NCBI GenBank assembly: GCA_019973155.2
Contig: BPQB01000003.1
Span: 930,001-994,000, forward strand
DNA length: 64,000 bases
From: Phanerochaete sordida
Taxonomy: Eukaryota; Basidiomycota; Agaricomycetes; Polyporales; Phanerochaetaceae
Reading direction: 5' to 3'
The notes under the pieces were generated by a model that worked only from the letters and a program-made list of their open reading frames with translations, ran no database searches and was not told the origin of the DNA. Every line of letters begins with the position of its first letter. Positions within the stretch are counted from its first letter, which is position 1. Both the position numbers and the translations under genes were made by a program. This document shows, piece after piece, positions 58,685-62,633 of the stretch.

Positions 58685-60031
58685 TCAGTACGGTACTTCG
58701 TTGAACAGCTTGGAAACACTTTCCCCGTTGTGGCTGCGCCTGATGACTTCCGCGAGGACAATGCCGATGTCAATGACTTCGATCTTCGGGCACTTGGCCA
58801 CGTTCTCCTCCTGCGGAAGCGTGTTCGTGACGACCAGTTTCTCCAGGGTGCTCTCGGAGATCGTTCTAAGTGCGTTGCCGCTGAGGATGCCGTGGGTGAC
58901 CAAACCGAAGACTCTTGTGGCGCCTGCTTCGGAAAGATGGGATGCCGCGAGACAGAGCGTTCCGCAGGTGTCGGCCATGTCGTCCACGAGGATAGCGACC
59001 TTGTCCTTCACGTGCCCGACGAGAATCATTCGCGAAACCTCGTTCGCCTTCTTGCGCTCCTTGTGGAAGAGAGCAAAGTCGACCCCCAGACGGTCTGCTA
59101 TCGATGTTGCTCTAGAGACGAGCGATAAGCCGCGTGAGCGACCGGCCGAAGGCAGCGGAGAAGGTCAACGGTAACCTACCGCTTTGCGCCTCCAGCGTCG
59201 GGTGACACTATAACAACGTTTTGTAGATCAAAGTTGTTGCGGATGTATTGGATGGCAGACGGCTCCGCGTAAAGCTGTATGACGTAGAGATGCACGTGTA
59301 TGGAGGGTCAGCAGACGAGATGAAAAGACGGAGCACTCACGCTGTAGAAAGAGCGTAACGATGTGAACACTCGGCTTGATTCGACAGGGTGACTAGACTC
59401 ACTTGTCGACTGGAACATCAAAGAAGCCCTGTATCTGCGACGCATGCAAGTCCATTGTCTAGGCGTGTTGTCAGCATGCGTGGTCTTCGGCTCGGGAGCT
59501 AGGAGGGAGAACCTACTATGACATGGTCGCAGCCAGACTTCTGCAACATGTTGGCCACAAGCTTGGCAGTGATGGGAGCCCGGCTCTTGTCCTTCTTGTC
59601 CTGGCGTGCGTACGGGAAGAGGGGGACCACGGCTGTGATTCTCTTTGCACTTGCGATCTTGCAGGCGTGGATCATAATGCAGAGCTCCATGAGCGAGGTG
59701 TTGACCTGGCCGGTGCCGGTGTTGATGATGTAGACGTCGTCTTCGCGCACCGACTCTATGATGCGCACATTGCTCTCGCCGATACCACTTTTATTCACGT
59801 CGGCGCGGCCGAGCGGGACACCAAGCCTTCAGCGAGGGATTCGGGTCAGCGCTGACTGCATGACACAGCGAGCGGGCTGGTATGGCTACTACCTTCGAGC
59901 AATGATCTCTGCAAGCTCGGGGTGGCTGGTGCCTACGTCCGCCGCAGGGAACCCTGAGGTGAGCAATGGCGCTGGCAGCACGGGCAAGCAGACGCACCAG
60001 AGAAGATTTTGATTCCGTTGCCAGTAAACAT
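58685..60031 (-). CDS. PRPS: Ribose-phosphate pyrophosphokinase (PRPP synthetase)
   Basis: Makes PRPP from ribose-5-phosphate and ATP for nucleotide, histidine and tryptophan synthesis. Exons: 60031-59998, 59932-59893, 59826-59517, 59458-59403, 59341-59341, 59274-59180, 59111-58685; 320 aa, the normal family length. Diagnostic blocks: [18 protein letters not shown], the catalytic flexible loop [55 protein letters not shown] and the PRPP loop [10 protein letters not shown]. The Asn codon of VDNLYAEP can be completed only by a one-nucleotide exon at 59341; without it the frame shifts and meets TAG after about 22 codons. The gene is divergent from the FAD oxidase. Confidence 0.93.
59341..59341 (-). 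other. Single-nucleotide exon in PRPP synthetase
   Basis: On the minus strand the base C sits between TTTCTACAG and GTGAGT, both strong consensus ends. The preceding exon ends in AA and the next begins CTTTACGC, so AA+C makes Asn of the conserved VDNLYAEP. Flanking introns are 61 and 66 nt. Total CDS is divisible by three only with this base. Confidence 0.8.
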
Positions 60032-60440
60032 GTTAGAGACAGTCCATGAAATAGTAGAGGGAAATAAGGATAGGGAGGAGAAAGAAGAAAAGGACGAGGA
60101 AGGAAGAGAGATGCTAGCGGAACCAGAGGATATTTTCCAAGCGCCCATGCGCTCACCGGGATGTGGGCGCCAGTGGTGCATCTCCATAAGCGGCGTGGCG
60201 CATCAACTGATGCGCCAGCCGCGGCCGTATCCCCGACCGGGCGTCCGCCTGCAACGCTCAAGCCTCTGCGACCCCCTGACGGCTCGTGGTCAAGTGACGC
60301 TTCCGCTCATTCGCCGCATGCGATATTGCGCAGTCGCTCGCTGCGGTATAAGGCGAGATGGCCCTCCCAGGCGCCTCCGTGTCTCCGCGTAGACCACGCA
60401 CGACGAGAAGCCATCAGCATTCGTCGAATCTCCATCCGGC
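60032..60440. promoter_or_regulatory. Divergent promoter PRPS / FAD oxidase
   Basis: 409 nt between the two start codons. A GA-rich stretch near 60050-60110 (CT-rich on the PRPS sense strand) lies close to the PRPS start, and TATAAGG at 60347-60353 points towards the oxidase. An ATG at 60358 opens a frame ending at 60457, a possible upstream ORF for the oxidase. Confidence 0.5.
60347..60353 (+). promoter_or_regulatory. TATA-like element of the FAD oxidase
   Basis: TATAAGG about 90 nt upstream of the chosen oxidase start codon. Role inferred from position and consensus. Confidence 0.35.
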
Positions 60441-62633
60441 ATGCTCGCAGACAATTTGAACATCCTGTGCACTTGGCTTGGCCTTTCGTGCGGGTTCATC
60501 GAGAGGCTTCTCGAGGTATGCACCTTCCTAGACCCCTATGACAAGCCGTAAGCTAACGCGATTCGCTAGACGTCTCCTGGGATTTCCGGAACCGACCCCT
60601 GCCGCTGCCTGTCGACAGATGCATGCTGGCCCTCCAGCACTGCCTTCGCTACGCTGGAGAGCAAGCTATCTACTCCGCTCGTCACGCCACTGCCACCGGC
60701 GACCCCATGCTACTCCTCTCTCGAATCTGAAGATTGCGGGGCCGTACAACGTCTGTGGCTAGACGGCTGGTGGCGCGCAAACAGTTCTGGCGCCACTCAG
60801 CACCCTAATTTCGCAGAGTTCGCAACGCCTGAGGGTGACACCGAGGTGTGCTATGTGAACACCACCCTAGGATACCCCTGCGGGCGGGGCAGCATCCCAG
60901 CTGTTGGAGTAGACGCACGCAGCGTCGAGGACATTCAGTTGGCCATCAACTTCGCCGCAGCGCGCAATCTCCGTGTAGTGGTTAAAAATACTGGGTAGGT
61001 AGTCTGCACTCTGGAAGACACGAGGCTAAAGCGCGTTTGGCTTCCGTAGGCATGACTATCTCGGACGTAGCACCGCTCGCGGCGCGTTTCTCATTTGGAC
61101 ACACCATCTCACGAACCTTACCTATCACGACACATTCAAGCCTGCTGGCGCTCCTGAGGGTGAAGTATATCACGATGGCAAGTAATCGTACTCGATTGTC
61201 GCGCTTCTCAGCTAAATCGCGATCGAACAGTGATGACCCTCGGGGCTGGCGTTCAATGGCAAGACGCGTACGATGCTGCCTTCGCACGTGGCAGAAACAT
61301 CGTTGGAGGCATCTCGTACGGCGGCAGCGTCGGTGCTGCAGGCGGCTGGGTACAGGGAGGGGGGCATAGTATCATAGCTCCCCTCTACGGGCTAGGTATG
61401 CATCTACTTCCTTCAGCGTAGCTTGTCCGCTTTCTAACATTTGCGAAGGTGTGGACAACGTCGTCGAGATGTCTATCGTCATTTCGACCGGCAAACACCT
61501 CGTCGTGAACGCCCATCAGCACTCAGACCTGTTCTGGGCACTGCGCGGGGGCGGCGGCGGCACATGGGGCGTCGTCGTCTCTGTCACATACCGGACGCAC
61601 CCCGCCCCGCCCATAAACGCCGCATTCTTCCTCACCTCGATCAACGCCTCCACGCCGGACGCGCTCACCACGCCGAGCCCGACGCTGCACAAGCTCTTCG
61701 CCGAGCTCGTGCGCCTGACGCCCGCCCTCGCGGACGCGGGCTGGGCCGGGTACGCGGACATCCTCGCGAGCGCGGACACGGGCCACCCCGCGCTGCGCGT
61801 CGCGTACATCGCGCCGGCGGACGCGCCCGCCGCGGTGCCGCTCATGGAGCGCTTCTACGCGTACGCGCGGGAGCTCGCGGAGAGCTCGACGCTCGCGCAG
61901 GGCAAGCTCCGCGTCGCCACGGCCGTGGTCAGCCCGCTCGCGAACTTTGGTGCGTGGGAGACGATGATCTTCCGCGGCAAGGACGGGCAGGGCCAGGTCG
62001 GGTTGAACGTCGAGCTCGGATCGAGGCTGCTTCCGCGCGAGCTCATTAAACGTAACCACACCAAGGTCGCGGATGCTGTACTAGGTCTGGAGCTACCGTT
62101 CATCGGGTTTTAGTGGGTCCCTCGGCACGGAAACGTCGTCTACTCAGATGCTGACTTTGAGTCAGCACCGTCACCGGAGGGGTCGTCAGTAAAGTCGATC
62201 CCGACGCCACAGGAATTCATCCAGCGTGGCGTAAGGCCTTGGTCCACTTGGTCTTTGGCTCAAGCTGGCCGGAGGCAGCTTCTTCCGACGTTGTAAACGA
62301 GATCCGCGAGAAGAACAAAAAGGGCGAAGCGGTTTTCCGTGAGATGACACCCGACGGCGGCGCATATTTCAACGAGGTGGGCCGTTTGAGATATGGGCAT
62401 CTCACGATGTGCTCAAGTAGTCTTTTCGTACACAGGCATCTCTCTATCAAGTCGACCCCAAGTCCGACTTCTTCGGTTCGCACTACCAGAAGCTCCGGGC
62501 TATCAAGAAGAAATACGACCCCACTGGCCTTTTCGTGGTGCACGGCGGGGTAGGCTCTGAGGACTGGGACGCAGACCTGCACTGCCGCGTCTCGCCGCAC
62601 CGCACCTCTCGTACACGGTCCGACGGCCTCTGA
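60441..62633 (+). CDS. Berberine-bridge-like FAD-linked oxidase
   Basis: FAD-dependent oxidoreductase of the PCMH/BBE type. Exons: 60441-60515, 60570-60994, 61050-61177, 61231-61395, 61449-62112, 62166-62376, 62436-62633; 621 aa. A Cys-rich start (DPCRCLSTDACWPS) as in secreted family members is followed by the FAD domain (VVVKNTGHDYLGRS with the flavin-binding His, VMTLGAGVQWQD, GGWVQGGGHS, LFWALRGGGGGTWGVV) and the C-terminal BBE segment (GGAYFNE, IKKKYDPTGLFVVHGGVG). The bicovalent-attachment cysteine is absent. Intron 61178-61230 starts with GC. A TAG at 62111-62113 is intronic. The first exon is weak: it does not give a good signal peptide, so the true start may lie in another small exon. 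Substrate unknown. Confidence 0.83.
61178..61230 (+). other. GC-AG intron in the FAD oxidase
   Basis: GCAAGT donor and AACAG acceptor, 53 nt. Splicing here gives EVYHDVMTLGAGVQW; the next available GT, at 61182, gives a frameshift. Confidence 0.7.

What the first reader, a model, noticed from the sequence alone, without database searches (positions are those of the whole stretch)
59274..59458. Single-nucleotide exon in PRPP synthetase
Seen: exon 4 ends GTCGAC-AA before GTGAGT; 61 nt later TTTCTACAG is followed by one C and then GTGAGT; 66 nt later CATACAG is followed by CTTTACGC. Only AA+C followed by CTT TAC yields the conserved VDNLYAEP, and the full CDS (963 nt) is divisible by three only with that base. 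A direct 4-to-6 splice frameshifts into TAG after about 22 codons. Removal of the first intron would place C directly beside GTGAGT, so sequential splicing could include the base without exon definition. Known: a one-nucleotide exon has been described in Arabidopsis; I know of none in a basidiomycete PRPS gene.
Basis: partly seen in the sequence, partly recalled or inferred. Interest (0 to 1): 0.9.

Follow-up and report, generated by a model that had tools for sequence, protein, structure and literature searches.

The report
One-base exon in PRPP synthetase gene

Summary
On the minus strand of Phanerochaete sordida DNA, a PRPP synthetase gene (963-nt CDS, 320 aa) reads in frame, by well-formed canonical sites, only if one C (59341) between CTACAG and GTGAGT is spliced in to complete Asn in VDNLYAEP. 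The flanking introns, 61 and 66 nt, match the gene's others (58-68 nt). The public protein of this gene (P0001) is reproduced exactly by a 25-nt exon that starts at the same C and adds eight residues. Evidence beyond the finding: of 77 named, genome-annotated entries (P0001 included) in two searches that list only the best 120 hits each, 71 depart from VDN at this codon (VDK, VDKW/Y/C, VDN missing, VDN+VS...), whereas of 67 contig proteins without organism name, probably transcripts, 66 read VDN and one VDS. A Postia placenta model and one such contig protein differ at that residue alone (K against N). The four-base form of the signature also appears in Phaffia, Cryptococcus depauperatus and Malassezia, which suggests an ancient exon. 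No P. sordida RNA and no relative's genomic DNA was read. One-base exons are known in plants and, since 2026, in Fusarium; this is a new case of apparently wide spread.

The parts
59998..60031 (-). exon 1 (34 nt, ATG start), followed by intron 59997-59933 (65 nt)
59893..59932 (-). exon 2 (40 nt), followed by intron 59892-59827 (66 nt)
   Evidence: acceptor chosen so that the protein matches homologues such as P0001 and P0002
59517..59826 (-). exon 3 (310 nt), followed by intron 59516-59459 (58 nt)
59403..59458 (-). exon 4 (56 nt), ends GTCGACAA, phase 2
59342..59402 (-). intron 4 (61 nt), GTGAGT...CTACAG, branch-like TTCAC with its A 22 nt before the end
59341..59341 (-). exon 5 (predicted): the single nucleotide C, third base of the Asn codon AAC in VDNLYAEP
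   Evidence: comparative support
59275..59340 (-). intron 5 (66 nt), GTGAGT...CATACAG, branch-like CTGAC with its A 33 nt before the end
59180..59274 (-). exon 6 (95 nt), starts CTTTACGCGGAG, followed by intron 59179-59112 (68 nt)
58685..59111 (-). exon 7 (427 nt), ends in TGA
59317..59341 (-). 25-nt exon implied by the public protein P0001 (adds VSAPSFHL): judged an annotation artefact that starts at the same C

Best explanation
A single C at 59341, flanked by a strong acceptor and a strong donor, is predicted to be a constitutive one-base exon of the PRPP synthetase gene, likely joined in by two successive intron removals. Shown here: the sites, the frame, the poor quality of the other routes, and recurrent departures from VDN at this codon in annotated proteins of relatives. 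Inferred: each short intron (61 and 66 nt) is recognised as a unit across itself (intron definition); the acceptor and the donor that share the base cannot both be held by the splicing machinery at once, so one intron goes first. If intron 4 goes first, the intermediate reads GTCGACAAC|GTGAGT and the second donor is used in the usual way. Skipping the base would shift the frame and stop 22 codons after the Asn, so the skipped mRNA would probably be destroyed. Inferred from relatives' proteins: the base is old in Agaricomycetes and perhaps in all Basidiomycota.
For: Frame and VDNLYAEP are restored only by this base among well-formed canonical routes. The 128-nt interval is about twice the gene's other introns (58-68 nt). 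Strong YAG|Y|GTRAGT in 0.07% of shuffles. The public protein P0001 is explained exactly by the same acceptor and the same C, running on for 24 nt. Named annotated entries+27: 71 of 77 (P0001 included, some species twice) depart from VDN here; contig proteins without organism name: 66 of 67 VDN, 1 VDS, none VDK. Two Dichomitus squalens models, K and KW, differ only by the inserted W: W can only be TGG, so unless the two strains differ in DNA the K model there would need an intron starting TG. The three other VDN-VS models (Rhizopogon VS, Lyophyllum and Tricholomella VSD) are read most simply as AA, C, GTG AGY, i.e. the same base followed by GTGAG. The genome's other PRPS copy (contig C8) reads VDNLYSEP uninterrupted in DNA. 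Solved PRPS1 and PRPS2 chains also read VDNLYAEP.
Against: No RNA read of P. sordida was available. No genomic DNA of a relative was read: one pattern gave 0 matches in viral and 0 in prokaryote collections, where fungi are hardly expected. Six of 77 annotated entries (Taiwanofungus twice, Somion, Laccaria, Moniliophthora roreri, Marasmius oreades) read VDN normally; I cannot tell intron loss from a good model. One contig reads VDS (P0044). Two other, weaker T exons also give VDNLYAEP. That jgi/lgn contigs are transcripts is my inference from unbroken ORFs of 319-322 aa on contigs mostly of 1-1.8 kb; the organism of P0026 and P0013 is inferred from identity. The predicted U1 pairing energies (-5.4, -6.2, -5.5 kcal/mol) do not favour an order of splicing.
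Confidence: 0.9

Rival explanations
1. One 127-nt non-canonical intron (TG-AG after AAG; the same product as GT-CA) is removed, giving VDKLYAEP with Lys in place of Asn.
For: It is the only single-intron route tested (GT, GC, AT or TG donors; AG or AC acceptors) that gives an in-frame protein with LYAEP near VD, and 27 of 77 annotated entries+27 carry exactly VDK-L.
Against: TG-AG introns are nearly unknown (recalled). None of 67 contig proteins reads K. Postia placenta K model against the N contig protein, 319 of 320 residues identical. K models are what one expects if a cDNA base C is laid on the genomic G by an aligner that cannot place a one-base exon (inference).
Confidence: 0.04
2. The public protein is right: a 25-nt exon (59341-59317) adds VSAPSFHL to the enzyme.
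For: It reproduces P0001 exactly and keeps the frame.
Against: Its donor GTCTGC is weak. None of the 67 contig proteins+27 carries an insertion here; the other three VDN-VS models carry VS or VSD instead. It breaks a motif also found in solved PRPS1 and PRPS2.
Confidence: 0.01
3. Sequencing or assembly error: a C is missing before the first GTGAGT and there is one ordinary 128-nt intron.
For: AAC|GTGAGT...CAG|CTT would be a plain phase-0 intron, and no reads were inspected here.
Against: Departures at the same codon show in 71 of 77 annotated entries, nearly all from other genomes. The interval holds a strong acceptor-C-donor (0.07% of shuffles). The published P. sordida YK-624 draft is Illumina MiSeq, 5,521 Mb of clean reads for 41.2 Mb (PMC8530024, read in full); that G000 is that assembly is not certain (341 contigs there, 222 here).
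Confidence: 0.02
4. An addition to the best explanation, not a replacement: the base is a regulated switch, and skipping it triggers mRNA decay and tunes PRPP synthetase level.
For: Skipping gives a stop at codon 169 and keeping intron 4 gives an immediate stop.
Against: Nothing tested shows skipped transcripts; the contig proteins listed read VDN or VDS without a shift, though full-length hits are what the search favours.
Confidence: 0.1

Closest known systems
Plant one-nucleotide exons: APC11 (PMC4674806, part 1 of 3 read; PMC8831610, passages) and VPS55 (PMC8831610, passages)
   Same: One base between canonical AG and GT, needed for frame, missing from annotations, conserved over diverse land plants; in VPS55 the donors are GTRAGT.
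   Different: Plants; shown by cDNA, RNA-seq and, for APC11, reporter constructs. The APC11 interval (422 nt) is longer than the 128 nt here.
Fusarium CYP621A one-nucleotide exon (PMC12940212, parts 1-2 of 3 read)
   Same: Fungus, nuclear gene, two short introns (139-nt interval in F. graminearum), one base in a conserved motif, gene models wrong, 18 SRA reads support it.
   Different: Ascomycete, rarely expressed P450, base G, orthologues of Fusarium/Nectria. Here a PRPP synthetase in Basidiomycota with an apparently much wider spread.
One-base exons between mitochondrial group I or II introns: placozoan cox1 (PMC5436844, passages); rnl of Ophiostoma adjuncti and Ceratocystis (PMC12308204, passages)
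   Same: A single base between two introns that must be removed in turn; cox1 also keeps a conserved residue.
   Different: Self-splicing type introns of mitochondria, not spliceosomal introns of a nuclear gene.
Spliceosomal twin introns (stwintrons) of fungi (abstracts in the listing only)
   Same: Two introns that need consecutive splicing.
   Different: In a stwintron an inner intron splits a splice signal of the outer one; here a coding base lies between two complete introns.

Membership tests
constitutive one-nucleotide exon | one base flanked by good acceptor and donor with proper intron sizes | tested here: met
   CTACAG|C|GTGAGT, introns 61 and 66 nt
constitutive one-nucleotide exon | base needed for frame and conserved residue | tested here: met
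   VDNLYAEP by good sites only with the base; skipping stops at codon 169
constitutive one-nucleotide exon | base present in mature mRNA | tested here: inconclusive
   no P. sordida RNA; contig proteins of relatives, probably transcripts, read N in 66 of 67 and S in 1; one-residue K/N difference from the Postia placenta model
constitutive one-nucleotide exon | splicing shown by reporter or mutation | not testable with these tools
   needs bench work
constitutive one-nucleotide exon | conservation among orthologues | tested here: inconclusive
   inferred from departures at one codon in 71 of 77 annotated entries and in Tremellomycetes and Ustilaginomycotina; no relative's DNA read
stwintron | internal intron splits a splice signal of an external intron | tested here: not met
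   two complete introns with a needed coding C between them
non-canonical TG-AG intron | mRNA carries AAG (Lys) | tested here: inconclusive
   no RNA of this species; 0 of 67 contig proteins carry K
PRPP synthetase (PRS) | ribose-phosphate pyrophosphokinase domains over cut-off | tested here: met
   PF13793, PF14572 and PF00156 over cut-off; TIGR01251 and NF002320 over cut-off (done with the 327-aa version)

The most novel reading that the evidence does not exclude
The one-base exon dates back at least to the common ancestor of Ustilaginomycotina and Agaricomycotina and has been kept in a housekeeping enzyme through most of mushroom evolution while most public gene models misread it; it would be the first spliceosomal one-base exon in Basidiomycota and the most widely conserved one outside plants.
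Probability: 0.55. Interest if true: 0.82.

Novelty: new member of a known kind. Interest (0 to 1): 0.74.

Why it matters
If true, it extends spliceosomal one-base exons to a basidiomycete housekeeping enzyme and suggests that such an exon can be kept for hundreds of millions of years (age recalled, not computed). It also points to a systematic error in public fungal proteomes: a conserved enzyme motif is altered in 71 of 77 listed annotated entries. The order of splicing and the reason for retention become testable across orthologues, and the locus is a ready benchmark for gene finders and RNA-seq aligners.

Tried and rejected
Genomic DNA of relatives: one degenerate pattern for exon 4 plus donor found 0 matches in viral contigs and 0 in genome contigs. 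Copies of the interval elsewhere in the genome: the 128-nt interval matches only itself (the tool warns that absence there is not proof). U1 pairing energies did not separate splicing orders. Literature: five searches for one-base-exon wording, two for microexons with basidiomycete or Cryptococcus (with 9 papers, 35 with 0) and one for microexon with PRPP synthetase names (20 of 197 papers shown) listed no title or abstract start that reports a spliceosomal one-base exon in a basidiomycete gene or in PRPP synthetase. Of the nine papers I saw passages of four (PMC3990503, PMC8022950, PMC4014442, PMC1184071): the first three mention microexons only as a mapping setting; PMC1184071 reports P450 microexons of 6 bp and more in Phanerochaete chrysosporium. 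Only openly licensed PMC papers are held. The odd models VDKCY (Rhodonia P0045) and VDKVVSPRS (Cytidiella P0007) were not explained base by base. A reading of the Leucocoprinus and Macrolepiota models (S before LYAEP) as AG plus C is a guess and not counted. The third homologue search was aimed at the VDKY form, so its counts are biased and kept out of the 77/67 tally. Searches used the 327-aa version with seven false residues near the start; the junction lies elsewhere and they were not repeated in that version.

Full report
What is there. The window is the stretch C3:930001-994000 of a 40.8-Mb, 222-contig genome. Contig C3 is 1,362,924 bp, exactly the contig length listed for protein P0001, a phosphoribosyl pyrophosphokinase of Phanerochaete sordida, and P0001 is reproduced letter for letter from the window. 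The gene lies on the minus strand with seven exons (60031-59998, 59932-59893, 59826-59517, 59458-59403, 59341, 59274-59180, 59111-58685), 963 nt, 320 aa. The protein matches the three Pfam domains of ribose-phosphate pyrophosphokinases over their cut-offs.

The one-base exon. Exon 4 ends GTCGACAA and exon 6 starts CTTTACGCG. Joined directly they shift the frame and stop at codon 169; intron-4 retention stops at once. Between them lie 128 nt, about twice the gene's other introns (65, 66, 58, 68 nt). Near the middle stands CTTTCTACAG|C|GTGAGT, leaving introns of 61 and 66 nt that both start GTGAGT and end ACAG, with branch-like TTCAC and CTGAC. The C completes AAC (Asn) of VDNLYAEP. Enumeration found three double-intron GT/GC-AG routes to VDNLYAEP; the other two need a 33-nt intron with donor GTTCAC, or a GC donor. 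The only in-frame single intron found is TG-AG and gives VDKLYAEP. Strong sites of this kind arise in 0.07% (YAG|Y|GTRAGT) to 0.31% (YAG|Y|GTRNGT) of 200,000 shuffles, against 14.6% for a bare AG|Y|GT.

The public protein. P0001 reads [16 protein letters not shown]. This is exactly what results if exon 5 is 59341-59317 (25 nt), that is, the same acceptor and the same C followed by 24 more bases up to a weak GTCTGC donor. The published draft of P. sordida YK-624 used BRAKER2 with manual curation (PMC8530024, read in full); that this is the same assembly is likely but not certain.

Relatives. each list the best 120 of 7,993 and 7,994 hits; together 144 proteins, of which 77 carry an NCBI name with organism (P0001 included, some species twice) and 67 come from jgi/lgn contigs without organism name. 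Of the 77, 71 depart from VDN exactly at this codon: 27 VDK-L, 22 VDK[W/Y/C]-L, 10 with VDN missing, 4 VDN-VS..., 8 others; 6 read VDN normally. Of the 67, 66 read VDN and 1 VDS. The 67 proteins are 319-322 aa long, 64 of them 320, on contigs of about 1-1.8 kb (P0031, 6,274 bp, is an exception), so I read them as transcripts (inference). The departing forms are what gene finders would do when one base is missing: shift the donor by +1 (AAG) or +4 (AAG plus one codon, then GT), use the GT of GTCGAC as donor (VDN missing), or add a small exon (inference from the peptide letters). VDN-VS in Rhizopogon and VDN-VSD in Lyophyllum and Tricholomella are read most simply as AA, C, GTG AGY, the same base and donor as here.

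Closest test against RNA. The Postia placenta model P0037 and the lgn protein P0026 (113 contigs, longest 1,573 bp) differ at a single residue in 320, K against N; the Rhodonia placenta model P0045 (the same species by recall) differs from P0037 only by C for L at the next residue. Fomes fomentarius P0033 (KW) and P0013 (N) differ otherwise at one residue. Two models of Dichomitus squalens differ only by the inserted W (all). A real K should show among the contig proteins; none of 67 has it.

Depth. A third search scored only 40 residues around VDKYLYAEP (best 120 of 2,572), so it is biased towards that form. It found VDKYL in Phaffia rhodozyma and Malassezia sp. CBS 17886, VDKWL in Cryptococcus depauperatus and VDKCL in Hydnum rufescens; taxonomy searches place these in Tremellomycetes, Ustilaginomycotina and Cantharellales. 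These four proteins are 72-80% identical to the window's. Shared descent of the exon is the simplest reading; independent annotation accidents are not excluded without DNA. Over all three searches 100 of 106 annotated entries depart from VDN, and 83 of 84 contig entries read VDN.

Mechanism. Shown: sites, frame, sizes, and the recurrence of departures at this codon. Inferred: intron definition and two consecutive splicing events, since one base cannot seat both an acceptor complex and a donor complex. Upstream-first would yield AAC|GTGAGT. U1 pairing energies (-5.4 kcal/mol for the exon-4 donor, -6.2 for the second donor before and -5.5 after removal of intron 4) do not decide the order. The second PRPS gene on contig C8 has no intron at this place and reads VDNLYSEP, so the intron pair belongs to this gene and not to the motif.

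Known cases. Spliceosomal one-base exons: APC11 in Arabidopsis (PMC4674806, part 1 of 3 read); APC11 and VPS55 in diverse land plants (PMC8831610, passages); CYP621A in Fusarium (PMC12940212, parts 1 and 2 of 3 read), which calls itself the first for a fungal gene. One-base exons between mitochondrial self-splicing type introns are also described, in placozoan cox1 and in rnl of Ophiostoma adjuncti and Ceratocystis (PMC5436844 and PMC12308204, passages). Searches (the last showing 20 of 197) listed no title or abstract start that reports one in a basidiomycete nuclear gene or in PRPP synthetase. Hence: a new member of a known kind, of unusual apparent spread.

Noticed in passing
G000 contig C8:365850-366979 (loci L005, L007, L010): A second, diverged PRPP synthetase gene (stretches 44-61% identical) whose DNA reads VDNLYSEP without an intron at that place.
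   Followed up: partly
protein P0044 (jgi contig, 1,139 bp): A contig protein close to the Laccaria one reads VDSLYAEP, the only one of 67 contig proteins+27 that does not read VDN; a sequencing error or a real variant.
   Followed up: no
proteins P0007 (Cytidiella), P0045 (Rhodonia), P0140 (Pisolithus), P0057 (Abortiporus): Gene models with other odd peptides at the same codon, not explained base by base.
   Followed up: no
window 60393-62113, + strand: Long open frames on the other strand beside the gene (look like an FAD-linked oxidase by recall); the two stretches scanned gave no Pfam match.
   Followed up: partly
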